Assembly: GCF_026151205.1 (NCBI RefSeq)
Contig: NC_087079.1
Span: forward strand, 1,328,028 to 1,392,027
Length of the DNA: 64,000 nucleotides
Direction: 5' to 3'
Source: Bolinopsis microptera
Taxonomy: Eukaryota > Ctenophora > Tentaculata > Lobata > Bolinopsidae
Shown here: positions 14,501 to 64,000 of the stretch, in pieces
Position numbering within the stretch: the first letter of the stretch is position 1
Layout: every line of letters starts with the position of its first letter
Made by a program: the position numbers and the translations under genes
The notes under the pieces: generated by a model
Database searches by the model: none
What the model saw: the letters and a program-made list of their open reading frames with translations, nothing else
Told to the model about the DNA's origin: nothing

Positions 14501-17500
14501 TGACTGTTGATAGAATGCGATACTACTACCTTCTATCACCCAATATTTATACCTAGAAGACCAGATCGGCTCACTCCCCTTGCATGCCTTTGACACGTAC
14601 GTCTCACATCCCTTGATACGAGAACCCCCCTTTAGCAAGAGCTCCCGTCCCTTATGTGATCTACGAGTCGAGCAGTCAGATCATGTTTACTTCTTAATGT
14701 ACAGCTATGATTTACAGAATTGACATGTAAACTCTACCCCAGATCTAGCCCATTTCTATGTCAATTAAATTCAATCCAACGATCACATCACTAATTATAC
14801 GTCACTAATTAGTGACGTGATTTGACCCCTCTTTGGGGGCCGGATCAGTTTCCGGTCCCAAAGTCTTCCAGCGCATGTGACAGCCTACTTCTATAAATTC
14901 TTGCCTTATAAGTTATAATTTCTGGGTTCGTTGACCAGCTTTTAAAGTTTAAACGTGTATGATTATAGTTGTACAATTAAGTAACAGTGCAGCCGTTTCC
15001 TATCCCTAATCGTATTCATAACCTTAAATTTAGCTCTAGCCTTCACTTTCACTATAAACCTTATATTATTCTACTTGTGCTCTCAGGCTCTGGAATCAGG
15101 ACAGTGCCTACCATTACCACCATATATCTTCAGCTGTCACCAATGCATGATTACGTGACTAATTGTATTTATCTTATCCTCGTAAATGTTCCGTTAGTAT
15201 TAATTTTTAATTGTTGTTATTTACCTGCAGATTTGATCATATCTAGACGCTTCTGTTGCTGGACTCGTTGAGAGCGCCTCTTTTTGCGCTGCAAAATGTC
15301 CTGATCCACTCGGAGTGAGGTTATTGGCACTAGACCCTCACTTCCAAACACGTTCCTCACCTGAGGTTATATTAACTAATTAGATAATTAGATGATTAAA
15401 TAGTGTCTTAGTGCAGTGGTAACTCAAACTCAAAGTGGTACTGGTGACTCTCTATTGTTGTTTAATTGCGATTCCGATCAGCACAATATAAGGGGGGAAT
15501 GCAACGTCAATTAATGTCAATTAATGTCAATTAATGTCAATTAATGTCAATGTCAGTTTTGCAAAATTTTGGAATACTGACATTAATTGACACGATATTT
15601 TTCGACCAGAGATTATGTAGTTCTACCATATTTTTAGCACTTTAGAACGTTTATATCATCAATTTATTCACTACTATCACATATGGAAATGTGAAATGTG
15701 AAAAAAATTCAGATCATTAAACAATAAAACTAAAATAATACGGTTTCCCGAAATTTAATTTTCTTAAATGGGCGTGGCCATCCAAGGGCGTGGTTCTCAA
15801 CATCATTAGAACTTAAAACCCACATTAAGGCCACAGGGGGGGGGGGGGTCCGAGGTCAATTTTGAGATTTTGAGATATGTTGTAGAGCTCGATCTAAATT
15901 TTCAAATGCTTTTGTCCTTACCGAAAACAAAGTTTCCTATTTGAAGATATCGCGCGTTGAATTTTGAGGTTTACCTGTAATTCTATTGTAAATGAAAACT
16001 TTAAATGCAATTGTGTTCAAAATCTATCTTCTTTTTCAGTTTATGACTTAGAACCTTGTAACTTGGCAACAATGTTCTTAAAGGTATTTTGAGTTTTTGT
16101 TATGTAACGATTTATGATATCTTGCTCCAAAGCTGAGATATGAGGTTAACCATGAGTGAGAATTACAAAATTTACAAAATTTAAAATGGTTAACCTCATA
16201 AAAAGAGTTAGGAGCAAAATTACAACAATCGTTACATAACAAACTTTGTAATTTATGTCAGGATCATAAGTTCCAAATTTGAGGTGAAATGGATAAAAGC
16301 TCTAGGAGAAGATAGGTTTTTGAGGTGGTAAATAAATTGTTCAGGAGAGTCAAAAGACTATGATTCTGAGAAAATATGTTAACCTCAATTTTCCAACAAA
16401 TAAAGGACATATAATAGTTCTGTTCACATTGGATGGCCAATTGATACCCATTGATAAGTTTAACTTGTGATGAGAGCAACAAAATGTTAAGAACTGGTTA
16501 TTTGTGAGGTTAACTGATTAAAATGGCAATAGTTAACCTCAATTTTACGACAAACTAGGCGCTCTGGGGGGCTAAAGATGGTGTGCAAGCGTCAGATAGT
16601 ACGTGGTCTGCCAACTGGCAAAAAACGTTTTTTCGACCTCGGACCCCCCCCTGTGGCCTTAAACGAAATGCCTTCATGACATTTATATTTGAATAATGAA
16701 TCTTAAACAGCTAACATTACTCCTTCATACTAAAAAAACCGATTCTAGATATTTAACCTGTATTACTTGTACTTACTTGTACTTGAAAAGGTCTCCTCCT
16801 AGTCGTTGGAGTGGCCTGCACCACAAAGTAACTCCTTTCTCCGGTGTATTAGACCTCTCCAGTGAACCCTGTCTGTAGCTTGTTGTTCTGCATCTTCTAT
16901 CGTGATGTTATCGACACCTGTGAAGATTGCTGCATCCTCCCGGACACATGACAACCAGTTTTTCCGAGGTCTACCTCTTGACCTTTTACCATGCTTTGGG
17001 ATCCAGTGCAGAAGATAGTTGGGTATTCTTTCTTCTGGCATCCTCACCACATGGCCAAACCATCGGAGTCTAGCTGCTCGTACGAAAGTATCTACAGGGG
17101 CGATGTTAGCCCGCTTAAGTACATCAGCATTAGATACATGATAAAACCATTTTATTTTCAGGATCCTCCTGAGACATCTATGATGGAACACCTCAAATCT
17201 TTTCATCTGCGTCTGTGTGGTATTCCATACCTCACTTCCATAAAGCAGTATAGTGAGAACAGCCGCTTTGTAAATCCTGATTTTAGTTGGAGTCTTGATG
17301 TTGCGACTGTACCATATACTGCTGAGCTGATAGAATGCCCCAGAGGCCTTTTGAATTCGAGCTGAAAGTTCTTTGTCAATTGTTCCATTCGCACTGATGA
17401 TTGCACCCAAGTAAGTGAAATTGCTGACCTGCTGTATTGGGAGACCTTCCACATTGATGTCCATAGTGTCGTCTTTAGAATACGGCCTCTGCGATGCACT

Positions 17501-20500
17501 TTTGCTGACAACCATGCTCTGTGTCTTGCCAGCATTAATCTTCAGACCCGCATAGGCACTGTATTTGCAGAGAAGGTCAGTGGTTTCCTGCAGCCCCTCT
17601 TTTGAGTTATCTAACATAGCCATGTCATCAGCGTAATCAGTGTCCAAAAGATGTTTCTCTTCTACCCCGGGGGCTGGCAGCTGTAATAAAGCCCCTTTGC
17701 TAATGACCTTGTTCAGTTCCATAAGGTATGCCGAAAAATTCAAACAAAAGTTGAAGACTGGTGGTCCCTGTATATCACCTTGCCCAGTACCCGAGTTGAC
17801 ATCAAACCAACCTGTAACCTCTCCATTGACCCTAACAGCACTAACTGTGTGAGTGAAGAACGCCTTCATAATTCTAATGTACTTGTCAGGTAAGCCGTAG
17901 TGCTGCATACTTCTCCAAATGAACTGCCTGTCAATTGAATCAAAAGCTGCTTTGAAATCAACAAAATTAATATACAGAGGGATATTATACTCAATGCATT
18001 GGTGTATAATACAGCGGAGTGAATAAACCTGGTCAATACATAACCTGTATAAGAAACCAATAAAATATGGGCGTGGCCGGTGTGGACCGAAGATGGAAGA
18101 GTTGAAAGCTGAAATTTGTTTTGTGGTCTTTGAACCTAAGGATCAACAGATAAGAACATACTCATAATTATTCAAGGACATTTTGTTTTTTTGAACCGGT
18201 CTAACTTACAGAGACGTGAATATCTTGAATATTTATCGAATAATGATAATCTCAAATTTCTAGACAAATTAATGTCAATTAATGTCAATTAATGTCAATT
18301 AATGTCAATGTCAGTTTGGGGTTTTTATGGAATACTGACATTAATTGACGTTGCATTCCCCCCAATATAACAATGGAAATTCTCCCGATAAACTAAATAA
18401 TTAATCTAAATTATCACGACAATTTCATGGTATTGCTTGACAGATTCATGTCTCCAGTTCGTTTTCTGAAGTAATCAAATTCTGTTACAATCCTTGCTTT
18501 TCAATAAAAATGTATCTTATTTTCCCCCTAGATTGTAGTCATTATGGACCGCAGAAACTTCTCTGAGTAATCAACACGTCAATTTGGATCACGTGAGAAG
18601 AGACGAGAAAGAGGAAGTAGAAGGATGGCGGTAACGGAGTTTAAGAGCCTGCTCGGAGATGTGGAGAAGATAGGTCCCCCGATCAGATGGCTAGATAAAT
18701 CAATAGCAGCGGTCCTGATACTAGCAACAATATTCGGCACAATTGGCAACTCTCTCTCCATTGTATTCTTCACAGCTGAAGCAGTTAGGAACAGAAACAG
18801 TTTATACTTTAAGAGAGTGTACCAGGTTATCAACATGGTGGACCTGTTGACTTGTATCTCCTTATTCCCTGTTATCGATGCTTTTATTGAGGACCCCGGC
18901 TACCCAGACTTCAGTTCAAAAAGCCCCATATTCTTTGGGAACAGTGTGTTCTGCACAGTGTGGGGGATGCTGTGGGAGATCCTCCCCTCCTTCTCAGTCT
19001 ACCTAGTAGGGGTGTTGTGCATATCTAGACTTGTGCTCCTCACTTGGAAGCGAGCAATAATGGTACCCTCCATAGTGTACCTCTTCATGGCTACATACCT
19101 TCTGATAACCGTCAGTGTAAAGATCTTCCTCCTGATGACGTATGATGACATGGACTACGAGGCCATGTCACGCTACTGTTTCCTGGTGTCACATACTGAC
19201 GAGTATTTCGCACAGAACGAGATAACCACACTAGCAATCATGATAAGTCAGCTGGCACTGCCCATTATCCCTGTCACTGTCTGCTTTGTAATCACCATGG
19301 TCATACTTTTAAAGGACAGAAACAAGATACCAAACACTAATCGAACCTGCCCGCAGCGCCAAGCTGCAATAACCGTCACCATGGTAACATTACTCTACAT
19401 CTTGTTTAACATCCCGGTAGTGGTTAATTTCTCCTTCTTCCTCTGCCACCTGATCTACACGGAGGGGAAATTGGAGTTCGTTGAGGTGTACTCTAACCAA
19501 TACTTATTCTACTACGCCTGGCCCTCTGTCTACGTGGTGTGTGTCGCTATTAACGCAGCGCTTAACCCCTGTGTACTCTTCTGGAGGATGAAGAGGTACA
19601 GGACATTTGTAGTGAACGTTGTAGAGGGCGAATTTCGCGGCAATCCTCATGTGTTGAGCAAGCCAATTGAACCACGGGAGAGGAAAGTACAAGTTGAGAC
19701 CCGCTTGTGAATTAACAGATAAAGGATGAAGGGACCTTAGAAAAAGTTTTTTTCTCGTGCAAATCCTTTTATTACATTAATCGTATAAACCACTTTAGTG
19801 AAATCCGCAAAGTTGTATTTCATTCGCGCGCCGAGATATCCAGCCAAAACAATTTGAACCTGTGACGTCAATTATGTGAGTTGCTCTGATCCGCGCATAT
19901 AGAAATACAGGTAAAATGAGCGTGCGGGCCGACTAAATTACTAATTAAGAATAAATTAACAATTTACGATACTAACGAGCCTATAACCAATGGAGAGGAG
20001 ACTTTTTATGACCGGTTGAAAAAAGAATTATCACCCTACGATAACCATGAGCCGAGATACACCTGGAATAAGATTGAAGTCACACAGAAAGGCATGTAAA
20101 TTATGTATATTTATAGCTCCCAACGTAACACCTAGCAACTCCCTGTTTCGTACCACAGTTGATATATCAACATGTCATATCAACACAACACGGTCCTAAT
20201 AAAAATGGATCGGGTAGGTATGAAATGCATGTCTTCATTCCAGTTGGACAAGCACCAAGCACCAAGCTTTTAAGTTCTAACTCACTATGTGACACTACTT
20301 ATAACGTAAGCAAGATTTGCAACTATTACACCAAGCAATATTATACCAAGCATAGCAGACGAACACATCCACATTCGTTACGCTTTACACTCAAGTCACA
20401 GCAAACTAAAACGGTAAATTATAAATGAGTGTACAACTAAAGGCCGGTACATGCGCAGTACGTGCGTACTCAGATAGGACTAGAGGCGCCAAGGGCCAGC

Positions 20501-23500
20501 TAGTAAAATGTCTTCTACTACATCATACATTCTTTTTAATTGTGTCCATATCGGGTTTCAAACAAGTCAAAACAAAATAGCAGTTTGTGGTTTAGTTAGC
20601 GGATGCTACTTATCTTAGCTATTTATAAATAGAAATGCCTACTACAACTACAAAAATGAAGAAAGCCTTTCTGAGTTACATTTAACTATTATTATTAAAG
20701 AGAATTATTCGTAACTTAGACTAATTCAGTGCAACCAAAGATACCGCTCTCGCAAACGCCAAAGGTAACACGACGTAATTAAAACAGAACAGGACAAAAT
20801 GTTGACACGAGCAAAGGGTGCGCGCGCACGTTGGTCTTAACACATAAGTGACGTCACAGCCCAAAATTGCTATCAGCCAATAGGAGCGCGGCGTGATATT
20901 GCACGAATTATCGATTTCACAGTCCGGCGTATTTTTGGAGTCTACACACTTTCACAGGACTTAAACGCGAATATTTGGAAGTAAATTCTAAGGTCCCCTC
21001 ATCCTATAATGAAACTATCTGTTTTTAAACTATGGAAACCTATTGCTATGGCAACCTGCTAAATTATTTCTTTGTAAAACAGTGTGTTTGGTTCAGAATG
21101 GTAATACTATCAACCAATAACTATTATTCATTAATGATAAGCAGATAGCTGCTTATCATTACTACTTTGTGTAGCTTTTCAACGAAAGACGGTGTGAAGA
21201 ATTTTTCCTGCTGTTTTGATGCTGTTTGTACATTTGGCTAATGTTTTTAATCTTTGGATTTTTAATAGGAATAGCGGGAGAAAATCAGTCTTGTTTTGTG
21301 CTGAGCTGTTATAAAAATGAATTTCATAATATCTTTGTTGTGATTCAAACTCTGTGATTCAATGTGGAACCGTGAAACAGTGTGAAAGTGCTACCGTCTG
21401 ACACGGGGAAGTGTTACGGGAAATTAATTAGTATAGTTCATACTTCTTCTTTATCGTAGGAGGCTGTGGTCATCATCACTATTGGATAGAGTATTGAAAC
21501 CCTGTGCTTACCCCGGTAACATATTAATTAGTGGAGAAAAAAGTACATACTACAGTACGTGTAAAATCCGGATTGGAGTATTGTTTATGAGTATTGTTTA
21601 TGAGTCGCATGGTTGCAAACTACATAACAAATAATTTGAGATCGTGAATACGATGTTGTAACATTAAAACGTTGAGTAAATTCCTCTTCTGATAAGAGCA
21701 TTTTTCCTTGTCGCATCAAACGGGATCAATACAATTTTACACAGAATATATACTACAGTACCCCACAATTAATTGGGCACTTATAAAATGTAGTCATGTA
21801 ATAATTAGTAGTACTAAATATGTGCTACACCCCCCTAATTAGAGATCTCTTATTGCATGTGATAATACAAGGCGTGTACAGTGTACACTCTGTGTAGAGT
21901 GTATACACTCTGTGTACAGTGTACACTCTGTGTAGAGTGTATAACTGAGTGTAGGATTACACGCACAGCTGGTGTGGCAGTTTGAGTGCTTGTTACATAA
22001 AGGAGTAGTAACTAAAGACCGTTATAAGAGATACACTAGTCCGGCTCTAGTACAGGGACAATGGACATGAAAAGGAGCTACCTAGTACCTACAAGTTACA
22101 ACACCTTGTACTAGAGACTTGGAGAGACCTTGTACTAGAGACTTGGAGAGACCTTGTACTAAACACTTGGAGAGACCTTGTACTAGAGACTTGGAGAGAC
22201 CTTGTACTAGACACTTGGAGACCTTGTACTGAACACTTGGAGAGACCTTGTACTAGAGACTTGGAGAGACCTTGTACTAGACACTTGGAGACCTTGTACT
22301 AAACACTTGGAGAGACCTTGTACTAGAGACTTGGAGAGACCTTGTACTAGACACTTGGAGACCTTGTACTAAACACTTGGAGACCTTGTACTAAACACTT
22401 GGAGAGACCTTGTACTAAACACTTGGAGACCTTGTACTAAACACTTTGAGAGACCTTGTACTAGAGACTTGGAGAGACCTTGTACTAAACACTTGGAGAC
22501 CTTGTACTAAACACTTGGAGAGACCTTGTACTAGAGACTTGGAGAGACCTTGTACTAAACACTTGGAGAGACCTTGTACTAAACACTTGGAGACCTCATA
22601 CTAAACACTTGAAGAGACCTTGTACTAGACACTTCAGGAGACCTTGTACTAGAGACTTGGAGAGACCTTGTACTAGACACTTGGAGACCTTGTACTAAAC
22701 ACTTGGAGAGACCTTGTACTAAACACTTGGAGAGACCTTGTACTAGACACTTGTAGAGACCTTGTACTAGAGACTTGGAGAGACCTTGTACTAAACACTT
22801 GGAGAGACCTTGTATTAAAGACTTCGGGAGACCTTGTACTAGACACTTCGGGAGACCTTGTACTAGAAACTTCGGGAGACCTTGTACTAGACACTTGGAG
22901 AGACCTTGTACTAAACACTTGGAGAGACCTTGTACTAAACACTTCGGGAGACCTTGTACTAGACACTTCGGGAGACCTTGTACTAGACACTTGGGGAGAC
23001 CTTGTACTAGACACTTCGGGAGACCTTGTACTAGACACTTCGGGAGACCTTGTACTAGACACTTGGGGAGACCTTGTACTAGACACTTGTAGAGACCTTG
23101 TACTAGACACTTCGGGAGACCTTGTACTAGAAACTTCGGGAGACCTTGTACTAGACACTTGGAGAGACCTTGTACTAGACACTTCGGGAGACCTTGTACT
23201 AGACACTTCGGGAGACCTTGTACTAGACACTTGGAGAGACCTTGTACTAGACACTTGGAGAGACCTTGTACTAGACACTTCGGGAGACCTTGTACTATAC
23301 ACTTCGGGAGACCTTGTACTAGACACTTGGAGAGACCTTGTACTAGACACTTGGGGAGACCTTGTACTAGACACTTGGGGAGACCTTGTACTAGACACTT
23401 GGGGAGACCTTGTACTAGACACTTGGAGAGACCTTGTACTAGACACTTGGGGAGACCTTGTACTAGACACTTGGGGAGACCTTGTACTAGACACTTGGGG

Positions 23501-26500
23501 AGACCTTGTACTAGACACTTGGGGAGACCTTGTACTAGACACTTCGGGAGACCTTGTACTAGAGACTTGTAGAGACCTTGTACTAGACACTTGTAGAGAC
23601 CTTGTACTAAACACTTGGGGAGACCTTGTACTATACACTTCGGGAGACCTTGTACTAGACACTTCGGGAGACCTTGTACTAGACACTTCGGGAGACCTTG
23701 TACTAGACACTTGTAGAGACCTTGTACTAGACACTTGTAGAGACCTTGTACTAAACACTTGGGGATACCTTGTACTAAACACTTGGGGAGACCTTGTACG
23801 AGCCACTTCGGGAGACCTTGTAGAGACCTTGTACTAGACAATGGTAAGATTTTTAAAGCACCACAAATTTAAGCAAACTCGCTTTATCAGATACCACTTC
23901 ACAAACGTTCAACAAAAGTTATATCAGATTATAATGTTATAATGATTAAATACCTGCCAGAATCCAGACGGACAGTTTGACATTCTCAGGACATATATCA
24001 CATCCCCTTCTTTAACAGACAGCCCCTTCTCATCTGGAAAAATAGCATTAGTTCACTAGTTCAGGAAGATTCAGTGACAATATTACATATCATCAATAAT
24101 ATTGAGAGCAGAAAGGGAGTGTCCTGAGAAACTAATCATAATTGTTAATCAAAGTCTGTACAGATGAACAACTAAAGACTACAATGATTTACCTTGATGT
24201 TCAGGTGGCATAGTGCCTGAGAACAGATTAAGTGCAGTACACACACAAATGTAATCCTGCTCATCTTCATTAACGATCACAGTTCCTCCTTTCTGAAAGG
24301 AAAAGAATATAATTATTTTCTATACAACTTCTATTTGCTATAAACATTTCAATTAAGGAATCTAAGAAATTTTGCGAAGTGTTATTGATAATCAAATTGA
24401 TTTGAATCATACAAACTCAGGTATTTTTGGTGACATCAGCAAAGCCTAGAACTTTCCCTAACCAAGCTTTCCCTAACCAAGCTATTAACCAAGCAGTTAA
24501 CAAGTTAAAAACTCTCAGCATATTATAACAGCTCCCCAAATGCAATACTGAATAGGGGGTGATGCAACGTCAATTAATGTCAATTAATGTCAATTAATGT
24601 CAATTAATGTCAATTAATGTCAATTAATGTCAATGTCAGTTTTGCAAAATTTTGGAATACTGACATTAATTGACACGATATTTTTCGACCAGAGATTATG
24701 TAGTTCTACCATATTTTTAGCACTTTAGAACGTTTATATCATCAATTTATTCACTACTATCACATATGGAAATGTGAAATGTGAAAAAAATTCAGATCAT
24801 TAAACAATAAAACTAAAATAATACGGTTTCCCGAAATTTAATTTTCTTAAATGGGCGTGGCCATCCAAGGGCGTGGTTCTCAACATCATCAGAACTTAAA
24901 ACCCACATTAAACGAAATGCCTTCATGACATTTATATTTGAATAACGAATCTTAAACAGCTAACATTACTCCTTCATACTAAAAAAGCCGATTTTAGATA
25001 TTTTACCTGTATAAGAAACCAATAAAATATGGGCGTGGCCGGTGGGGACCGAAGATGGAAGAGTTGGAAGCTGAAATTTTTTTTGGTGGTCTTTGAACCT
25101 AAAGATCAACAGATAAGAACATACTCATAATTATTCAAGGACATTTTGTTTTTTTGAACCAGTCTAACTTACATAGACGTGAATATCTTGAATATTTATC
25201 GAATAATGATAATCTCAAATTTCAAGACATATTAATGTCAATTAATGTCAATTAATGTCAATTAATGTCAATTAATGTCAATTAATGTCAATTAATGTCA
25301 ATTAATGTCAATTAATGTCAATGTCAGTTTGGGGTTTTTATGGAATACTGACATTAATTGACGTTGCATTCCCCCCACTGAATATTAACGCAGCGATACC
25401 ATTCCCAATAAAACCAAAAATCGAATAACCACATATTCTGCATAACTATATCTGTTATCATGTGAAATTTTATAAAAGTCGTAGCTCGTTAATTTTGGAG
25501 ACATCGAATAACCACATATTCTGCATAACTATTATATCTGACAAGTATTTAGTATAATTAATATTGAGTTTACCAAGAACCAGGGTGTGGAAACTGACCA
25601 GCACAGTAGCGGAGGGTTGCGGGTATTTAGGGTTATTTTCTATCGTCCTATCAATGTCAAATATCTTCAAATCATCCACACTTGGCTCCCAAAACCAAAG
25701 GAACGGATCACTCTGAAAGACGTACTTTGTAACATAGTTATGGAATAGTAACAAAAAACAACAATGGTAGAAGATTGTTGGTGATCATTTCCATTTTTGC
25801 CCCACATTTATTGGTGAAGATAAATAAAATGTAAACCTAAAACTTGTAACTTCCAACTAGTTTAAAATGTTCCAATCGCAATGATAGACTACAAATAAAT
25901 AACAGATTTATTTTAACAAATAACAGATTGATTATAGATAAATAAAAGATTTGTTACGTATGTGAATATTATAAAGGAAATGAGGAGAGTATAATACCCA
26001 GGTAAAATGATTCTGCCGTTTTCTGACTTCAGTGCTTTTAAGAAGTGTTAAAGACCATTAAAAAATCCAAAGTTTTCAAGTACTTTAAATGACACATATT
26101 TGACAAATCTTGGCATTTTAGAAGGTTCCAAAAGGGGATCTTTGGGAGCCTGCAATTGATTCTTTAATGGTTTCTGATAGTTTTCAGGGAAAGTTCTTGA
26201 CCCAAAAAGGAAATTTGCGTTAAAGAATTCAGAATTTTAAAAGGTCTTTAAGCACATTTACCAGAAAACGGCAGAATTGCTTATAATATAACGTTACCTG
26301 CTGCATGAAAGTGGGAATACTGAGAAGCGAATCAACAAAGTGCTTTATATGAGGAAGGTGCTTCAGAGCAAAGCTTTCTGTAGTTGAGCGCTCGAATATT
26401 TGGCGACCTATAGTGAAAAGAAGTGCTGAAATCTAGTTCAAATCACAAAATAAACATTTAAAGGTTAAAGAGAATTCATTTCGCATCTTTAGTTCAGCCA

Positions 26501-29815: not shown

Positions 29816-32518
29816 AACAATTTCAAGAAAACAACAATTTTATTTAGTATCAGTTAAAGCAGACAAAAACATATTTTATAAATATAACTAGTGCAAACTT
29901 TAGACCATATATATTAGGGGACTTGGAGTAGCAAGAGAGTGACCAGAAAGTATATGTATACTTTTACCAAAAATACGTCGAAATGAATCCAGGGTGATAC
30001 AGGATCTAGGAGTGCAGACCATAAAGTTTACGCACCCACCCTTGCCTCCTGAATTCTTGGTTGGAAAGACAATTATGCAAAATTGGTCGTTTATACTCCA
30101 AGTCCCTTTGTTAATAGAAGTAGTATTATTTATGTCTGGAGTTAGCTTCATTCAGTAATAACAATATCAATATAATCAATATTAATATCAATATCAGACT
30201 AAACTATCAAATAAATAAATTATCAAATATCAATTATTAATTCACTCTGATTAAAAAGTTATAAATTAGGATATCTAATATTTAAGAATTACAACTACAA
30301 GTTGTTAAAAACGCCCAAAATAGATCTGAGATATTTTCAGTCTGTAGTACAATAGTGATAGCAATAGTTTAAATTATGTTATGTGCCGCTGCAATTAGAT
30401 TAAATTACTGTAACTTAAAATTGTTTGGAGTCCAAGTCTCTTTTAAGTCAGCAGCCTGTGATTGTATTAATAGTGCTTTCGTTCTCAATTTTATCAAGTT
30501 AATGGAAGTTTCTAGACAATTACTTGAAGTTAAAATTTTTTTATGAACAGTGTTCCAAAGCTTGGCTGCATTAAACAAAAAGGTATTTGATTTATTTAGA
30601 AGAATAACTGTTAGACTCGTTGCACGGTTTGAAATGTTGATAGCCTCATAAAGGGAGTATGGGCAGTGGTACTTGATAATCTTAGAGAATTCTAAAATAC
30701 AGTGATATTTGTACAAGTTTTGAGCCGTAAGAATTTTTAACCTATTAAAAATGGGTTTCGTATGCTCCTTTTCAAAATGTTTATGGCCTAGTATTTGCAT
30801 GCCATATGGTCTAGTTCTTGCACATGTTGATTGTTTATCTAGATATGAGTCGAGATCACCAAAAAGGATTCTTATACAGTGCTTCTGTGTGATAAAAAGA
30901 CTATCATTTGACCGTTCTTTGAGGACAACTCCCCAAACACTTATACCATAGCTTAGATGTGATTCAAATAGAGCATTATATATTTTTAAATATAGTTCAG
31001 CAGGTATCGGGTGCCGAATTCTACAGATTGCACCAGTCATGGACCTCAGTTTTTTACGGATGTAGTGCATGTGGGCAGACCAGTTTAGCTTACTATCTAT
31101 AACAACACCTAAGAATTTGGTATCCTTGACTTTAGTGATAACCTTACCATTGATGAATATTGATCTAGATTCATCTAGCAGGGTACCAAATGGTCTAGTC
31201 CGTGCACAAGTGTCATCATATTCAGAGGCAGGTTTAAAATGGATGTAGCAGCATTTTGACATGTTGATATGAAGTAGATTACATTTCATATAAATCGAGA
31301 CATGTTTAAGCACTAAGTTGGCTTTTTTGTATGTTGCTTCTCTAGACGGTCCTGATATGAAGATATTAGTGTCATCAGCATAAAGTACAAATTTCACTTC
31401 ACTGTCTGAAAAACAGTTTACTATATCGTTCATATACAGTAGGAAGAGTAATGGCCCTAGAATTGACCCTTGAGGAACCCCGAATTCCACATCCATTGTT
31501 TCTGATGGTACATCGTTATACATCACATACTGCTTTCTGTTAGTCAAGTAGCTTTTTAGTAAAGTTAGTGCTGTGCCCCTAATACCATAGGAATTTAGCT
31601 TGCTTAGAAGAATATTATGATCAAGGGTGTCAAAGGCTTTGCTCAAGTCAATGAATATGCCTAGGACATGTTTATTCCTAGCCAGGGACTTTGTAACAGA
31701 GTCTATAGATTTGTGTAGAGCATGGGCGGTAGAATGGCCTTTTCTAAATCCAAACTGCGAGTCTGTTAGTACACCTTTAGATGTGAAGAAATTATAGAGC
31801 CGTTTGTAAATGACCTTCTCGAAAATTTTTCCAAATAAAGGTAATATTGATACAGGCCGATAATTTTCAATACATTCCTTATTGTCTTTCTTGTAAATAG
31901 GAATAACTTTACCAGTTTTAAAAATACTTGGGAATGTTCCACTTTGTATACATATGTTGTAAAGCCTAGCCAAGGTACCAGCGATGAGCTTTGCCGATTT
32001 TTTTACAACGATTATAGGAATGTCACTTGCCTTGCCATTTTGAAAATCTCTGATGACCTCGATAATCTCATTTTCATTAGTTTCTTCTAGGTATATGGAG
32101 TCAGACACTGAGTTAGACATGAATTGAGCAAATGATTCTACTGGTTCCAGAGAAATACTATTGTTCGACAATACATTTCTATTGAGATTGCTTGCAAGAG
32201 ATGTAAAGTATTCACAAAATTTGTTAGCAATTATTCGTCTGCAAGTAATTCTCTGGCCATCTATGACAAAATCGTCCTTACATCTAGACATATTCTTACC
32301 ACGGAGTTCATTGATAACTTCCCAGGTCTTTTTTGAGTTCATGCTGTACTTCTCGAATTTTCTAGTATAGCACATAGCTTTTGCCATATTTATTGAGTTT
32401 TTGAGAAACTTGTTGAATTCCTTGTAGCAGATGTGCTTGTTTTGATCCCCGTCAGGTAGTTTTAATGTACAAGTCTTCTTCCATTCGAAATACAACCTAG
32501 CTTTCTTGTCTATGGAAT
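29816..32518 (-). mobile_element. 5'-truncated CR1/Jockey-type LINE inserted in repeat R1
   Basis: The minus-strand frame runs from the 5' junction at about 32518 to the stop near 30405, about 700 residues without interruption. Visible motifs: NYRPVSILPLFGKIFEKVIY, QFGFRKGHSTAHAL, FIDLSKAFDTLDHNILLSKL, FGVPQGSILGPLLFLLY and the catalytic YADDTNIF, followed by the CR1-like C-terminal domain (ISVWGVVLKERS, ILFGDLDSYLD). The apurinic endonuclease is missing because of 5' truncation. The first codons of the apparent open frame (PSRICPEKASFTL) come from the flanking repeat, not the LINE. The 3' untranslated part extends to about 29816. An uninterrupted frame points to a young copy. Confidence 0.85.
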
Positions 32519-33060
32519 TAAGTGTGAACGAGGCCTTCTCCGGACAAATTCTTGAAGGCAAGTCTTCTCTAGCTGAAGTCCGAACAGTATTGATTCACGA
32601 TGTCAATCCTTCGCAGCTCGGTGAGGCAGTGGTGCATCTCGCCGATCTACCGTGGTTGCGAGAAGAATTATTTGATGCGCGGCGCGACCCAGTAGTGCAT
32701 CGCGCTACAAGAACAGTATAATTTATCTGATAGTGTATTACTAAGGTGCTCTGCTGATAATTGTAGTAAAGTAATCAATACATGCTAAAAAAATGACCTC
32801 TGACGAGGTTCGAACCGGGATGAGCTCAATAACATAAGCCGCCTTAGCCACTGTGCTACTAGAGGCTCAGCAGATTTACAATATGTAACGCTATAATCTA
32901 TATAAAAATACGCGCACGCAAGTAACTTTTCGTTATTTATGGATCCGAATAAAAGCGACATACCCACAATTCTGAGAAATAAACCTTGCGTGACATAAAG
33001 CGACATAATCGCAATTTCGCCCACACATTTGCTAGAACACCTCCTCGGATAGAGCAAAAC
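32519..33060. mobile_element. Repeat R1, copy B, right part, with tRNA-like segment
   Basis: It continues R1 after the LINE, from gtgtgaacgaggcctt. On the minus strand at about 32790-32865 lies the best tRNA-like segment of the family: gcctct pairs with agaggt, the A-box is tagcacagtgg and the B-box is ggttcgaacct. The anticodon arm is imperfect, so I do not call it a functional tRNA gene. A 121-bp MITE is inserted at 32590-32710. Confidence 0.65.
32590..32710. mobile_element. Short MITE, copy 2 (121 bp)
   Basis: It is an inverted relative of 29109-29240, here flanked by an exact 8-bp duplication gaacagta (32582-32589 and 32711-32718). The empty site is visible in R1 copies A and C, where the single gaact(c)gta continues directly. 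Confidence 0.8.
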
Positions 33061-58407: not shown

Positions 58408-59611
58408 ATGGTAGAGAGAACCCGACAGTTTAAGGTTGAAGTAAAGAAACAACGTAACCTCTCTGGAACTACAGGAGTAGACTCTAACATCCTACCAACC
58501 AAGTCGCACCACACCCAGTTTACTAAAAACGCTACTAGCGTCCTCCACACTATCAAACAGGTTACTTGATTCTCGTCCGTTTGATGAAAAACGACGAGTA
58601 AATCATTGCTATTAGGTATTCAGTCACTGTCATGATTTGTTGGTATACCGCCCCTACCGTGCTTATTTAATCAGTTAATTAATTAATTGATTAATAAGTT
58701 AATTGATTAATTATCGCAGCTAGATGAGCTAGTGGAAGAAACACGTGAGAAATACATAGGATCTCCCTGCAGCAATGAGTTCTCTAGTCTCTCCGATCGA
58801 CAGAGGTAATTCATCCTCTTAACTTCATATTAAAAATGTTGTTTGTTTGCTATTAAAAAAAGTTGTTTGAATGCTTTTGATGTGGCTGATAACAGGCAAC
58901 AGCACATTTATTATTTACTAATGCCTACTTAATAAATTCTCTAGACTCTAATTACATTATCTAGCAAATAAGTAATTCTGTATAATATCTATCAGGTTGG
59001 ATATAGACATGTCAGCTAACATGTTTATGGTTCAATGTAAGGACGCTATCTCTTCTCTTTCTAAAAGAGTCTCCGATACCAACGGTTCGTGAAGTTATTT
59101 TACATCGTCAATAGTTATAACTTTATAAGCTCTGATATTTTACCATAATTTGTATATTGACTGTTGTTTTAAAAGAACAAATTGTTCTCTCAGTTCAATA
59201 AATTTGGTAAGTCCTTCTCTCAATCACTCTTGTATTATCAGGGCAACTGAAGACACACCAAGAAGGAGTGATATTCGTGCTGACCCACTGTCTGAAGCTG
59301 ACGTGTGACAAGTACTCTAAAACTAAAGCTATCCACGTGAAGCAGACGTTGGAACAGCACAGACTTGCTAAACTCAGCTCACATCGCAACACTATTGACA
59401 AGATACGGAATATGGAGCAGGTAATTTTAGATTAGGTTGGGGTGGGGCGGGGTGGAGTGGAGTGGAGTGGGGTGGGGTGGGGTGGGGTGGGGTGGGGTGG
59501 AGTGGAGTGGGGTGGGATGGGGTGGGGTGGGGTGGGGTGGGGTGGGGTGGGGTGGGGTGGGGTGGGTACACTGAATTCACTTGCTTTACTTTACAGTCAC
59601 TGAATGACTGA
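58408..59611 (+). CDS. Syntaxin-18-like protein, N-terminal domain only
   Basis: Exons: 58408-58560, 58720-58805, 58996-59084, 59242-59420, and a tiny last exon 59597-59611 that adds SLND and a stop; about 173 residues. The sequence aligns with the N-terminal helical region of syntaxin-18, an ER SNARE for Golgi-to-ER traffic: FTKNATSVLHTIKQLDELVE, TREKYIGSPCSNEFSSLSD, RLDIDMSANMFMVQCKDAIS, LTHCLKLTCDKYSKTKAI and VKQTLEQHRLAKLS. Full-length syntaxin-18 is about 335 residues and ends with a SNARE helix and a membrane anchor; neither is found before a polyadenylation signal at about 59689 and the convergent gene at 59873. Either this is a truncated paralog, or the real 3' exons lie elsewhere or were lost. 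The ATG lies five bases after an acceptor-like AG. Confidence 0.75.
59436..59567 (+). repeat. GGGGT/GGAGT G-rich tandem repeat
   Basis: A pentanucleotide array (ggggt with ggagt variants) lies in the last intron of the syntaxin-18-like gene. Runs of four G every five bases make it a strong G-quadruplex candidate in the transcript. The proline/histidine/threonine frame on the opposite strand is an artefact. Confidence 0.9.
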
Positions 59612-59872: not shown

Positions 59873-62800
59873 TCAACTATATGATATTATTCTGACGGAA
59901 TCTTTAACTTCTTTCAACAAATCATTCAATCCTGACACTTCATTCACTGATCGAATATTTGAACGTAGTAAAATAACTGAACAATATACTCTTGCTCTTG
60001 ATATCATCAGGTAAAGTGGAGCTATTCCAGTCTCCTCAATTCTAGCATCTAGTAAAACTATAGCTGCAGGGTATTCAGCTGAATAACAATCCTTGACGTC
60101 GAGAACGTCTATATTCCCATCAGATGCCCTATCTGCAACTGTCGTTATTTCAGGAAACTCACTGGACAAAGAGGAATCCACCACTACTCCGCACGACACA
60201 CCTGTTTTACATAGCTTATCAAGTTCTTTAGTCAAGATAGCAACAATCATTGAACCATCATCCACCAAGTGAACAACAGTCCGAGGTCCATGTATGTAGT
60301 GGCCTGGTCTGAGCATTGGAAAAACTATGTTTGGATCTCCTGATTTCACTTCCTGAGATAACCGTCTTCTTATTTTAGTTAGGTTATCTGCTATATCCCG
60401 GGTATTTCTTAAGTTCAGAAATAATGTAACACAACAGGGGAAATCTAGTATGAAATTCGACTGGGCTCTCATCTTATATTCATTAGACACGTGCATCTGA
60501 GTTGAATCGCACGTTAACCAGACCAAGCATGATTTTTTCGATGATTCATTGAATCTCTTCTGCAATTCTTCCGTTATCTTTCCATTTTCAGGGTGGTTTT
60601 TTAAACCTGCCTGAAAATCATCAAGAAACACATGTACGTTTTTCAAAAAACGGGTTTTGATCAGCTCACTAAGCATATCCTCTGAAGAAGCAGACTTCCT
60701 TATTGGTATCTGAACTAACACTAGCTGAAAAAAGGCAGACCATTTCAAAGATTTCATGTCCATCACCTTGTAACTGAGTCCTGCTTCTTTTAACGGATCT
60801 TCATACCCTTTAATATTCGATTCGCTATACTTGTTTCCCTTATAAATGATCAACACAACTCTATTGTTTTCGTTAGATTTGATCAACTTTATGATTTTAG
60901 CTAACAAGATGATAGTTTTTCCCGAACCAGAAGGTCCATTTATCAGGAGCAATTTCTGATCGCTAATGAAGGCTTTATGCTGTTCGGCTGTCAAATGTTC
61001 AATTTTGAGAAAGTCCTTAAAAATATTAGTTCCATCAGCGAGATTAGCAGCTTCTATATCTAAAACGTTGATCACGTTTGGGTTCTTAGGTTGGTTTTTG
61101 CTGAGATATGTTATCCTCCCTCTCCTCAGCTCCTCATCTATGTCCTTTACACACTTTCCCAAACTGCACTTTAGTTCATCACACTGGTTCTTATCAGTGC
61201 GCCAGATTGCAAGTAGTATCTCTTTAGCCACCTCAAAACCAGCAATTACAGGAACACCCCCGGATATTGAATCAGTGCGCCAGATTGCAAGTAGTATCTC
61301 TTTAGCCACCTCAAAACCAGCAATTACAGGAACACCCCCGGATATTGAATCAGTGCGCCAGATTGCAAGTAGTATCTCTTTAGCCACCTCAAAACCAGCA
61401 ATTACAGGAACACCCCCGGATATTGAATCAGTGCGCCAGATTGCAAGTAGTATATCTTTAGCCACCTCAAAACCAGCAATTACAGGAACACCCCCGGATA
61501 TTGAATCAGTGCGCCAGATTGCAAGTAGTATATCTTTAACCACCTCAAAACCAGCAATTACAGGAACACCCCCGGATATTGAATCAGTGCGCCAGATTGC
61601 AAGTAGTATCTCTTTAGCCACCTCAAAACCAGCAATTACAGGAACACCCCCGGATATTGAATCAGTGCGCCAGATTGCAAGTAGTATCTCTTTAGCCACC
61701 TCAAAACCAGCAATTACAGGAACACCCCCGGATATTGAATCAGTGCGCCAGATTGCAAGTAGTATCTCTTTAGCCACCTCAAAACCAGCAATTACAGGAA
61801 CACCCCCGGATATTGAATCAGTGCGCCAGATTGCAAGTAGTATCTCTTTAGCCACCTCAAAACCAGCAATTACAGGAACACCCCCGGATATTGAATCAGT
61901 GCGCCAGATTGCAAGTAGTATCTCTTTAGCCACCTCAAAACCAGCAATTACAGGAACACCCCCGGATATTGAATCAGTGCGCCAGATTGCAAGTAGTATC
62001 TCTTTAGCCACCTCAAAACCAGCAATTACAGGAACACCCCCGGATATTGAATCAGTGCGCCAGATTGCAAGTAGTATCTCTTTAGCCACCTCAAAACCAG
62101 CAATTACAGGAACACCCCCGGATATTGAATCAGTGCGCCAGATTGCAAGTAGTATCTCTTTAGCCACCTCAAAACCAGCAATTACAGGAACACCCCCGGA
62201 TATTGAATCAGTGCGCCAGATTGCAAGTAGTATCTCTTTAGCCACCTCAAAACCAGCAATTACAGGAACACCCCCGGATATTGAATCAGTGCGCCAGATT
62301 GCAAGTAGTATCTCTTTAGCCACCTCAAAACCAGCAATTACAGGAACACCCCCGGATATTGAATCAGTGCGCCAGATTGCAAGTAGTATATCTTTAGCCA
62401 CCTCAAAACCAGCAATTACAGGAACACCCCCGGATATTGAATCAGTGCGCCAGATTGCAAGTAGTATCTCTTTAGCCACCTCAAAACCAGCAATTACAGG
62501 AACACCCCCGGATATTGAATCAGTGCGCCAGATTGCAAGTAGTATATCTTTAACCACCTCAAAACCAGCAATTACAGGAACACCCCCGGATATTGAATCA
62601 GTGCGCCAGATTGCAAGTAGTATATCTTTAGCCACCTCAAAACCAGCAATTACAGGAACACCCCCGGATATTGAATCAGTGCGCCAGATTGCAAGTAGTA
62701 TCTCTTTAGCCACCTCAAAACCAGCAATTACAGGAACACCCCCGGATATTGAATCAGTGCGCCAGATTGCAAGTAGTATCTCTTTAGCCACCTCAAAACC

Positions 62801-64000
62801 AGCAATTACAGGAACACCCCCGGATATTGAATCAGTGCGCCAGATTGCAAGTAGTATCTCTTTAGCCACCTCAAAACCAGCAATTACAGGAACACCCCCG
62901 GATATTGAATCAGTGCGCCAGATTGCAAGTAGTATCTCTTTAGCCACCTCAAAACCAGCAATTACAGGAACACCCCCGGATATTGAATCAGTGCGCCAGA
63001 TTGCAAGTAGTATCTCTTTAGCCACCTCAAAACCAGCAATTACAGGAACACCCCCGGATATTGAATCAGTGCGCCAGATTGCAAGTAGTATCTCTTTAGC
63101 CACCTCAAAACCAGCAATTACAGGAACACCCCCGGATATTGAATCAGTGCGCCAGATTGCAAGTAGTATCTCTTTAGCCACCTCAAAACCAGCAATTACA
63201 GGAACACCCCCGGATATTGAATCAGTGCGCCAGATTGCAAGTAGTATCTCTTTAGCCACCTCAAAACCAGCAATTACAGGAACACCCCCGGATATTGAAT
63301 CAGTGCGCCAGATTGCAAGTAGTATATCTTTAGCCACCTCAAAACCAGCAATTACAGGAACACCCCCGGATATTGAATCAGTGCGCCAGATTGCAAGTAG
63401 TATCTCTTTAGCCACCTCAAAACCAGCAATTACAGGAACACCCCCGGATATTGAATCAGTGCGCCAGATTGCAAGTAGTATCTCTTTAGCCACCTCAAAA
63501 CCAGCAATTACAGGAACACCCCCGGATATTGAATCAGTGCGCCAGATTGCAAGTAGTATCTCTTTAGCCACCTCAAAACCAGCAATTACAGGAACACCCC
63601 CGGATATTGAATCAGTGCGCCAGATTGCAAGTAGTATCTCTTTAGCCACCTCAAAACCAGCAATTACAGGAACACCCCCGGATATTGAATCAGTGCGCCA
63701 GATTGCAAGTAGTATCTCTTTAGCCACCTCAAAACCAGCAATTACAGGAACACCCCCGGATATTGAATCAGTGCGCCAGATTGCAAGTAGTATCTCTTTA
63801 GCCACCTCAAAACCAGCAATTACAGGAACACCCCCGGATATTGAATCAGTGCGCCAGATTGCAAGTAGTATCTCTTTAGCCACCTCAAAACCAGCAATTA
63901 CAGGAACACCCCCGGATATTGAATCAGTGCGCCAGATTGCAAGTAGTATCTCTTTAGCCACCTCAAAACCAGCAATTACAGGAACACCCCCGGATATTGA
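59873..64000 (-). CDS. SF1-like P-loop NTPase with massive 26-residue repeat N-terminus (partial)
   Basis: The minus-strand frame is open from the window edge to TGA at 59873-59875; the true start lies outside. The N-terminal part is about 36 tandem 26-residue units (AKEILLAIWRTDSISGGVPV and six more residues). After the last unit the sequence changes at KNQCDELKCSLGKCVKD. The C-terminal 400 residues show superfamily-1 helicase-like motifs: EHLTAEQHKAFI (Q-like), Walker A LLINGPSGSGKTIILL, Walker B HVFLDDFQ, motif III VWLTCDSTQM, LRNTRDIADNL and motif VI YLMISRARVYC. Such domains occur in Schlafen-like and DUF2075-type proteins. Helicase activity is unproven. There are no frameshifts over more than 4 kb, so selection or very recent expansion keeps it open. 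The gene converges on the syntaxin-18-like gene. Confidence 0.75.
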   Translation of the reverse strand, partial: SISGGVPVIAGFEVAKEILLAIWRTDSISGGVPVIAGFEVAKEILLAIWRTDSISGGVPVIAGFEVAKEILLAIWRTDSISGGVPVIAGFEVAKEILLAIWRTDSISGGVPVIAGFEVAKEILLAIWRTDSISGGVPVIAGFEVAKEILLAIWRTDSISGGVPVIAGFEVAKEILLAIWRTDSISGGVPVIAGFEVAKEILLAIWRTDSISGGVPVIAGFEVAKDILLAIWRTDSISGGVPVIAGFEVAKEILLAIWRTDSISGGVPVIAGFEVAKEILLAIWRTDSISGGVPVIAGFEVAKEILLAIWRTDSISGGVPVIAGFEVAKEILLAIWRTDSISGGVPVIAGFEVAKEILLAIWRTDSISGGVPVIAGFEVAKEILLAIWRTDSISGGVPVIAGFEVAKEILLAIWRTDSISGGVPVIAGFEVAKEILLAIWRTDSISGGVPVIAGFEVAKDILLAIWRTDSISGGVPVIAGFEVVKDILLAIWRTDSISGGVPVIAGFEVAKEILLAIWRTDSISGGVPVIAGFEVAKDILLAIWRTDSISGGVPVIAGFEVAKEILLAIWRTDSISGGVPVIAGFEVAKEILLAIWRTDSISGGVPVIAGFEVAKEILLAIWRTDSISGGVPVIAGFEVAKEILLAIWRTDSISGGVPVIAGFEVAKEILLAIWRTDSISGGVPVIAGFEVAKEILLAIWRTDSISGGVPVIAGFEVAKEILLAIWRTDSISGGVPVIAGFEVAKEILLAIWRTDSISGGVPVIAGFEVAKEILLAIWRTDSISGGVPVIAGFEVAKEILLAIWRTDSISGGVPVIAGFEVVKDILLAIWRTDSISGGVPVIAGFEVAKDILLAIWRTDSISGGVPVIAGFEVAKEILLAIWRTDSISGGVPVIAGFEVAKEILLAIWRTDSISGGVPVIAGFEVAKEILLAIWRTDKNQCDELKCSLGKCVKDIDEELRRGRITYLSKNQPKNPNVINVLDIEAANLADGTNIFKDFLKIEHLTAEQHKAFISDQKLLLINGPSGSGKTIILLAKIIKLIKSNENNRVVLIIYKGNKYSESNIKGYEDPLKEAGLSYKVMDMKSLKWSAFFQLVLVQIPIRKSASSEDMLSELIKTRFLKNVHVFLDDFQAGLKNHPENGKITEELQKRFNESSKKSCLVWLTCDSTQMHVSNEYKMRAQSNFILDFPCCVTLFLNLRNTRDIADNLTKIRRRLSQEVKSGDPNIVFPMLRPGHYIHGPRTVVHLVDDGSMIVAILTKELDKLCKTGVSCGVVVDSSLSSEFPEITTVADRASDGNIDVLDVKDCYSAEYPAAIVLLDARIEETGIAPLYLMISRARVYCSVILLRSNIRSVNEVSGLNDLLKEVKDSVRIISYS
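61193..64000 (-). repeat. 78-bp coding tandem repeat, 36 units to window edge
   Basis: The period is exactly 78 bp: 2808 bp equals 36 periods. Units are identical except at two sites: codon 3 is GAG or GAT (Glu/Asp) and codon 1 is GCT or GTT (Ala/Val). The Val variant always carries Asp and lies next to another Asp unit, in two places (about 61455-61545 and 62540-62630), suggesting block duplication. The array continues beyond 64000. Confidence 0.98.

What the first reader, a model, noticed from the sequence alone, without database searches (positions are those of the whole stretch)
59873..64000. About 36 near-identical 26-residue repeats fused to a superfamily-1-like P-loop NTPase
The array is perfectly in frame (78 bp), almost invariant at the nucleotide level, and directly continuous with an intact NTPase domain with Walker A, DDF, LRNTR and SRAR motifs. 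The last unit runs straight into unique sequence, so the unit probably derives from a segment next to the NTPase that was amplified. A repeat protein of over 900 residues before an SF1-type motor is not a layout I know. It could be a sensor or scaffold in a defence-like NTPase, or an expanding polymorphic coding minisatellite.
Basis: partly seen in the sequence, partly recalled or inferred. Interest (0 to 1): 0.85.

Follow-up and report, generated by a model that had tools for sequence, protein, structure and literature searches.

The report
64-copy coding repeat splits predicted nuclease-helicase
One gene of the comb jelly Bolinopsis microptera, belonging to a large family of predicted nuclease-helicase proteins, carries 64 almost identical copies of a 26-residue segment that its closest relative found here has only once; the copies likely arose by repeated DNA duplication that began between two matching six-base stretches, and if translated would push the two enzyme parts far apart.

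Summary
The array is real: 36 units of 78 bp (61193-64000) run straight into an SF1-type NTPase frame (59873-61192, minus strand). In the assembly (Bolinopsis microptera) the window cuts the array: it has 64 units and follows a 257-residue N-terminal part resembling the PD-(D/E)XK nuclease domain NERD. The gene belongs to a large, intronless-looking NERD plus SF1-helicase family (109 helicase-side and 91 NERD matches genome-wide). Its reciprocal-best relative P0016 (74-79% identical) has exactly one unit, at the same place, in the connector between nuclease and helicase. The expanded segment is bounded by a 6-bp direct repeat (ACTGAT), as expected of a microhomology-mediated duplication; 78 = 3 x 26 keeps the frame. 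I read it as a coding minisatellite that turned a short connector into about 1,660 residues, predicted to uncouple nuclease from motor. A second family member (P0086, source unnamed) carries an unrelated array, 15 perfect 30-residue copies, elsewhere in the protein, so such arrays arose at least twice. Caveats: one unit has an extra T that breaks the frame, no RefSeq product was found, the assembler was wtdbg2, no reads or RNA were available, and an AF2 beta-solenoid for the bare repeats is probably an artefact.

The parts
61193..64000 (-). Array, 36 units of 78 bp (26 residues, SISGGVPVIAGFEVAKEILLAIWRTD); continues beyond the window to G000:C8:1394212 for 64 units in all
   Evidence: window; assembly
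61193..61270 (-). Last (C-terminal) unit, consensus type, joined directly to the helicase-side connector KNQCDELKCSLG
61193..61198 (-). ACTGAT, 6-bp direct repeat at the array's 3' (C-terminal) boundary; its partner stands just before unit 1, outside the window (beside C8:1394212)
   Evidence: the 5' and 3' boundary sequences share exactly this hexamer next to the breakpoint
59873..61192 (-). Helicase-side connector and SF1-type NTPase domain through the stop codon (439 residues + TGA)
   Evidence: fold from the relative's model
60914..60937 (-). Walker A motif GPSGSGKT

Best explanation
In one member of a comb-jelly family of predicted NERD-nuclease/SF1-helicase fusion genes, a 26-codon piece of the connector between the two domains is present 64 times in tandem instead of once, an expansion that likely began as a duplication between two ACTGAT hexamers and grew by slippage or unequal exchange. 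SHOWN: the 64 units, their near identity, the hexamer at both boundaries, one unit at the same place in the reciprocal-best relative P0016, no such array flagged in the other family members examined, conserved catalytic motifs in the family. INFERRED: the first duplication was microhomology-mediated and stayed in frame because its length was 78 bp; the interior was then homogenised, leaving the founder-like unit at the N-terminal edge. PREDICTED, untested: in the normal protein the unit is a loop plus a helix in a connector that holds the nuclease near the motor, so that nucleic-acid binding or NTP hydrolysis by the motor can gate the nuclease; with about 1,660 inserted residues a translated product would have the two domains on a long tether and largely uncoupled. 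Whether a full-length product exists depends on whether the one-base insertion in the thirteenth unit from the N-terminus is real.
Against: One unit of 64 has an extra T (T3 to T4) that, if real, ends the product at 594 residues, after the nuclease part, 12 units and part of the thirteenth; downstream there is no Met before Walker A, so the helicase would have no ATG-started product. No protein of 257-2,406 residues identical to this NTPase was returned (about 7,990 candidates scored in each), whereas six other B. microptera family members are listed as NCBI entries. The nuclease half scores below Pfam's NERD cut-off (14.8 against 22.1) and differs at 6 of 33 nearly invariant positions (one, M1, probably an alignment effect at the start), tied with L019 and behind only L030 (7) among 40. 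AF2 on 10 bare units gave a beta-solenoid (pLDDT 72.9, pTM 0.72; the other four models 67.4-47.7), against the helix in the relative's model. All substitutions between units change the residue, so there is no sign of purifying selection inside the array. A second, unrelated array in P0086 shows that such arrays are not tied to this connector. No reads, RNA or second individual were available.
Confidence: 0.72

Rival explanations
1. The gene is dead or dying: the one-base insertion is real, the helicase is not translated, and the array is a neutral minisatellite in a pseudogene of an expanding family.
For: 79-bp unit at C8:1393198 and no Met before Walker A downstream; NERD below cut-off and 6 of 33 nearly invariant nuclease positions changed; no RefSeq product found; some other family members carry stops (for example L018).
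Against: Both flanking parts are otherwise open with no stop; helicase positions are kept except two shared with P0016; the nuclease D, E-x-K and Q are kept; the extra base lengthens a T run in one of 64 near-identical units of a wtdbg2 plus pilon assembly, where short-read polishing would hardly place reads uniquely (inference).
Confidence: 0.3
2. The copy number is an assembly artefact: the true allele has far fewer (or more) units.
For: Tandem repeats are a known source of assembly error (PMC6868369, title and abstract start in a search listing); wtdbg2 was used (PMC10232365, passages).
Against: The array is 5 kb, within long-read length; substitution variants recur at scattered positions rather than in one repeated block; the unit matched nowhere else in the assembly at that search's sensitivity. 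This rival changes the number, not the existence of an amplified unit.
Confidence: 0.25
3. The array is a selected, working feature: a hydrophobic, amphipathic loop-helix repeat that makes the protein polymerise or serve as a variable-length scaffold, a diversifying segment of an innate-immune family.
For: Unit GRAVY 0.83, helical moment 0.40 for FEVAKEILLAIW against 0.21 at the strand angle; a second family member, P0086, has 15 perfect copies of another 30-residue unit; L034 and L038 carry tandem duplications before the connector; the family is large and partly clustered. Raised from 0.12 to 0.15 after P0086 was recognised.
Against: The array is absent from the relative P0016; substitutions inside it all change the residue; no expression or variation data; one frame break; P0086's array lies after Walker A and that protein lacks the SRAR motif, so it may be a damaged gene too.
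Confidence: 0.15
4. The array is spliced out as an intron made of coding repeats. Each unit carries a GT (CCT-GTAATT) and, 18 nt on, an AG (TTTTGAG), so splicing between two units would remove 78k+18 nt (one more if the 79-bp unit lies inside) and rejoin the two halves in frame, even across the extra T.
For: Read directly from the unit sequence.
Against: Both sites look weak against the general GT-AG consensus (recalled); 39 of 49 paralog loci show one uninterrupted frame of at least 650 codons.
Confidence: 0.05

Closest known systems
Bolinopsis microptera uncharacterised proteins LOC134824910, LOC134824719, LOC134816381, LOC134815876 and the unnamed relative P0016
   Same: NERD-like part, connector, SF1 helicase, one long open frame; P0016 shares the very unit, once
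   Different: none of the five has the array; lengths 669-750 residues
P0086 (1,034 aa, source unnamed), a relative with its own array
   Same: NERD-like N-terminus (18.9 bits, below the 22.1 cut-off), connector, Walker A, and a near-perfect in-frame array
   Different: other unit (30 residues, 15 perfect copies at 526-975), other place (after Walker A), no SRAR motif; best B. microptera matches only 36-37% identical (top two rows)
NERD (PF08378) proteins, including bacterial NERD+UvrD fusions such as PADLOC candidate C3a187, and Nhi
   Same: nuclease and SF1 helicase together, by the label of C3a187; four of four intact paralogs tested pass the NERD cut-off
   Different: PADLOC matches of P0016 cover only 27-63 residues around Walker A (C3a187 E 0.0052, Nhi E 0.0025): analogy of layout, not membership
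UvrD/Rep-type SF1 helicases; Schlafen helicase domain
   Different: Schlafen group 3 profile below cut-off; nuclease part not compared structurally
Hachiman HamAB (sensor helicase restraining an effector nuclease)
   Same: the idea that a helicase gates a nuclease (PMC12278908, abstract start in a search listing)
   Different: two separate subunits; used here only as a model for coupling, no sequence comparison made
Coding VNTRs such as the LPA kringle IV-2 array or prawn Rlec lectin repeats
   Same: tandem amplification in a coding region (PMC11462820, PMC7536079, abstract starts in a search listing)
   Different: here a connector helix between two enzyme domains; variation between individuals unknown

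Membership tests
Coding minisatellite | Tandem units of roughly 10-100 bp inside a reading frame, unit length divisible by 3 | tested here: met
   78 bp, 64 tandem units between two coding parts; 63 of 64 keep the frame
Coding minisatellite | Unit number varies between individuals | not testable with these tools
   one assembly only; P0016, from another, unnamed source, has one unit
Coding minisatellite | Transcribed and translated through the array | not testable with these tools
   no RNA; no RefSeq product found
NERD nuclease-related domain (PF08378) | Profile match over curated cut-off | tested here: not met
   this gene 14.8 bits against 22.1; four of four paralogs tested (L011, L017, L020, L022) pass. 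A divergent member of a family whose other tested members qualify
NERD nuclease-related domain (PF08378) | PD-(D/E)XK residues D, E-x-K, Q | tested here: met
   nearly invariant D97, E110, K112, Q136 of P0016; this gene reads KYDY, EVKN, KQRE and none of the four is among its changed positions
Superfamily 1 helicase | Q motif, Walker A, Walker B, motif III, Arg motifs | tested here: met
Superfamily 1 helicase | NTP-driven translocation or unwinding | not testable with these tools
   no assay
Schlafen group 3 (PF09848) | Profile match over curated cut-off | tested here: not met
   14.5 bits against 24; 15.9, 18.1, 15.3 and 14.2 in four paralogs
Bacterial anti-phage NERD+UvrD (C3a187), Nhi, GajB | Match over most of the profile | tested here: not met
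   P0016: stretches of 27-63 residues around Walker A; P0001: up to 84 (GajB) and 134 (AbiLi) residues

The most novel reading that the evidence does not exclude
Comb jellies have a large, so far undescribed family of NERD-nuclease/SF1-helicase fusions that works like bacterial nuclease-helicase immunity and repeatedly grows coding arrays; in this member the connector has become a fast-mutating length dial, unit number setting how tightly the motor restrains the nuclease, with 64 units giving an unleashed or polymerising form.
Probability: 0.12. Interest if true: 0.85.

Novelty: new variant of a known kind. Interest (0 to 1): 0.58.

Why it matters
It is a clean case of a large coding repeat whose single-copy relative, breakpoint hexamer and founder-like unit can all be read, so the birth of a coding minisatellite inside an enzyme can be followed. 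It also points to a large NERD-helicase family in a ctenophore that my paper searches did not find described, with a pairing of domains known from bacterial defence candidates and with a second, independent array in another member. The insertion would be a natural test of whether such fusions need their two halves close together.

Tried and rejected
Array as an N-terminal repeat protein: rejected, a NERD-like part precedes it. Mobile-element cargo: NOT excluded for the family. Of 463 similar flank pairs among 900-bp flanks, 314 join loci on different chromosomes and 148 the same one (1 within a locus); of those of 300 bp or more, 79 and 56, involving 34 loci. This gene's own flanks matched no other locus's, and comparing its two flanks gave only two 22-bp matches (E 0.11 and 0.39); I made no systematic search for terminal repeats or target-site duplications. 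Beta-solenoid for the array: set aside because AF2 is reported to fold perfect repeats into confident but unrealistic beta-solenoids (PMC11795689, abstract and outline), four of five models were less confident, and the relative's model has a helix there; not disproved. Viral origin: the viral structure search returned mostly helicases and replicase polyproteins, TM-score by query length 0.38 or below in the 50 rows shown; no support. Relaxed constraint on the nuclease half: 6 of 33 against 2 of 46 nearly invariant positions, but overall identity to P0016 is higher in the nuclease half (79%) than in the helicase half (74%), so I do not claim it. Other arrays: a scan of all 134 retrieved proteins for three or more copies flagged seven: P0085, P0088, P0095, P0108 (ankyrin domains), P0053 (acidic run), P0132 (10-residue period) and P0086; a two-copy scan of these and of the paralog frames had flagged P0086 earlier but I first misread it. 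Family counts are lower bounds (one search scored 91 of 315 candidates), and I fetched 49 paralog loci besides this one. Papers: 0 papers with ctenophore, NERD and helicase; PF08378 occurs in none of the 10 rows listed of 5,866; 1 paper, a sorting-nexin review by its title, listing only; listings.
Full report
What is there. The minus-strand frame 59873-64000 is open for 1,375 codons and contains 36 units of 78 bp at 61193-64000; 30 of 36 are identical. The window is G000:C8:1328028-1392027 of a 264.65 Mb, 232-contig assembly. The organism is Bolinopsis microptera: the open frame of locus L011 matches RefSeq LOC134824910 at 99.7-100%, and the contig length given for that record, 16,350,194, is the length of contig C13. 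The published assembly is listed with 265 Mb and 346 scaffolds (PMC11797021, passages) and with 13 chromosome-scale scaffolds (PMC10232365, passages); the number of contigs held here is smaller.

The window cuts the array. In the assembly it has 64 units, C8:1389220-1394212: 54 match the consensus, 6 have one substitution, 2 have two, 1 has three, and 1 is 79 bp. Upstream is an ATG at C8:1394983 and 257 residues before unit 1 that include KYDY, EVKN and KQRE, the pattern of a PD-(D/E)XK nuclease. Read in frame throughout, the product would be 257 + 1,664 + 439 = 2,360 residues; as assembled, the 79-bp unit ends it at 594, after 12 units and part of the thirteenth.

How the array arose. P0016, 669 residues on a 574-kb contig with no source name, is the reciprocal-best match among the proteins in hand and has the 26-residue segment once: NVTD-SISGGTSVIAGFEGVKEILLAIWCTD-KNQCDELKC. 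None of the other fetched paralog frames or retrieved proteins was flagged with this array. At the DNA level the 5' boundary (AATGTAACTGAT|TCAATA) and the 3' boundary (TGGCGCACTGAT|AAGAAC) agree over exactly ACTGAT beside the breakpoint. A duplication between the two hexamers of a single-copy ancestor gives a 78-bp unit; 78 is divisible by 3. Growth by slippage or unequal exchange and homogenisation are inferred from near identity. The N-terminal unit, the most divergent, keeps Val where 61 of 64 units have Ala; P0016 and paralogs L012, L019 and L027 have Val, L011 Met, so the founder-like copy is probably at that edge.

It is not the only array in the family. P0086 (1,034 residues, source unnamed) carries 15 perfect copies of a 30-residue unit at 526-975, flanked by imperfect copies, after its Walker A at about 364; it has no SRAR motif, and its two best B. 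microptera matches are 36-37% identical and end before the array. Unit and place differ, so this is an independent birth. L034 has a tandem duplication of period 73 (40 of 40 compared residues identical) and L038 one of period 67 (70%), both before the connector. Family loci share flanks across chromosomes (314 of 463 flank pairs), so dispersal by a mobile element is open.

What it would do. In the relative's model the unit comprises residues without regular structure (203-214) and a helix (215-227) between the last nuclease-side helix and the helical stretch leading to the helicase. A compact connector would let the motor gate the nuclease, as a helicase restrains a nuclease in Hachiman (PMC12278908, abstract start); about 1,660 inserted residues would loosen that. 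This step is a prediction. The shape of the repeats is unknown: the AF2 beta-solenoid is of a kind reported to be unreliable (PMC11795689, abstract).

What speaks against a working gene. The extra T (T3 to T4) in one unit breaks the frame, and no Met lies between it and Walker A. No protein of 257-2,406 residues identical to this NTPase was returned. Six of 33 nearly invariant nuclease positions are changed, tied second-highest of 40. For a working gene: catalytic residues kept, helicase positions kept apart from two shared with P0016, and an assembly route (wtdbg2, pilon) that could leave a homopolymer error in a near-perfect repeat. I leave this open.

Verdict. It is a coding minisatellite grown from one connector segment of an otherwise ordinary member of a large NERD-helicase family: a new variant of a known kind, interesting for its readable origin, for a second independent array in the family, and for the family it reveals.

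Noticed in passing
genome-wide (G000), for example C13:8008064-8056547: 91 NERD matches and 109 SF1-helicase matches of one intronless-looking nuclease-helicase family, partly in tandem clusters; my paper searches found no description in ctenophores (14, 58, 59).
   Followed up: partly
protein P0086 (residues 526-975): A relative with its own coding array: 15 perfect copies of a 30-residue unit after Walker A, no SRAR motif.
   Followed up: partly
flanks of 34 of the fetched family loci: Flank matches of 300 bp or more between loci are more often between chromosomes (79 pairs) than within one (56): a hint of mobile or segmental dispersal.
   Followed up: partly
L034 (C5:21991857-21993218), L038 (C12:10403760-10405148): Family members with tandem duplications of period 73 (identical over the 40 residues compared) and 67 (70%) before the nuclease-helicase connector.
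   Followed up: partly
L018 (C8:374871-376301) and L012 (C8:213279-214718): L018 has nine in-frame stops and shares a 3' flank 97% identical over 669 bp with L012: probably a recent duplicate with one decayed copy.
   Followed up: no
proteins P0085, P0088, P0092, P0093, P0095, P0108: Some relatives of the helicase part are proteins with ankyrin repeats (Pfam accessions listed; names recalled).
   Followed up: no
window 22103-23822: A second long array, 72 copies of 24 bp (91% matches), with open frames of 386-429 codons on both strands; the one frame scanned gave no Pfam match over its cut-off.
   Followed up: no
window 30405-32594 and 16799-18142, minus strand: Two open frames with reverse-transcriptase domains (PF00078): retroelement copies or remains.
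   Followed up: no
window 59438-59566: 26 copies of TGGGG (plus strand) about 300 bases beyond the 3' end of this gene.
   Followed up: no
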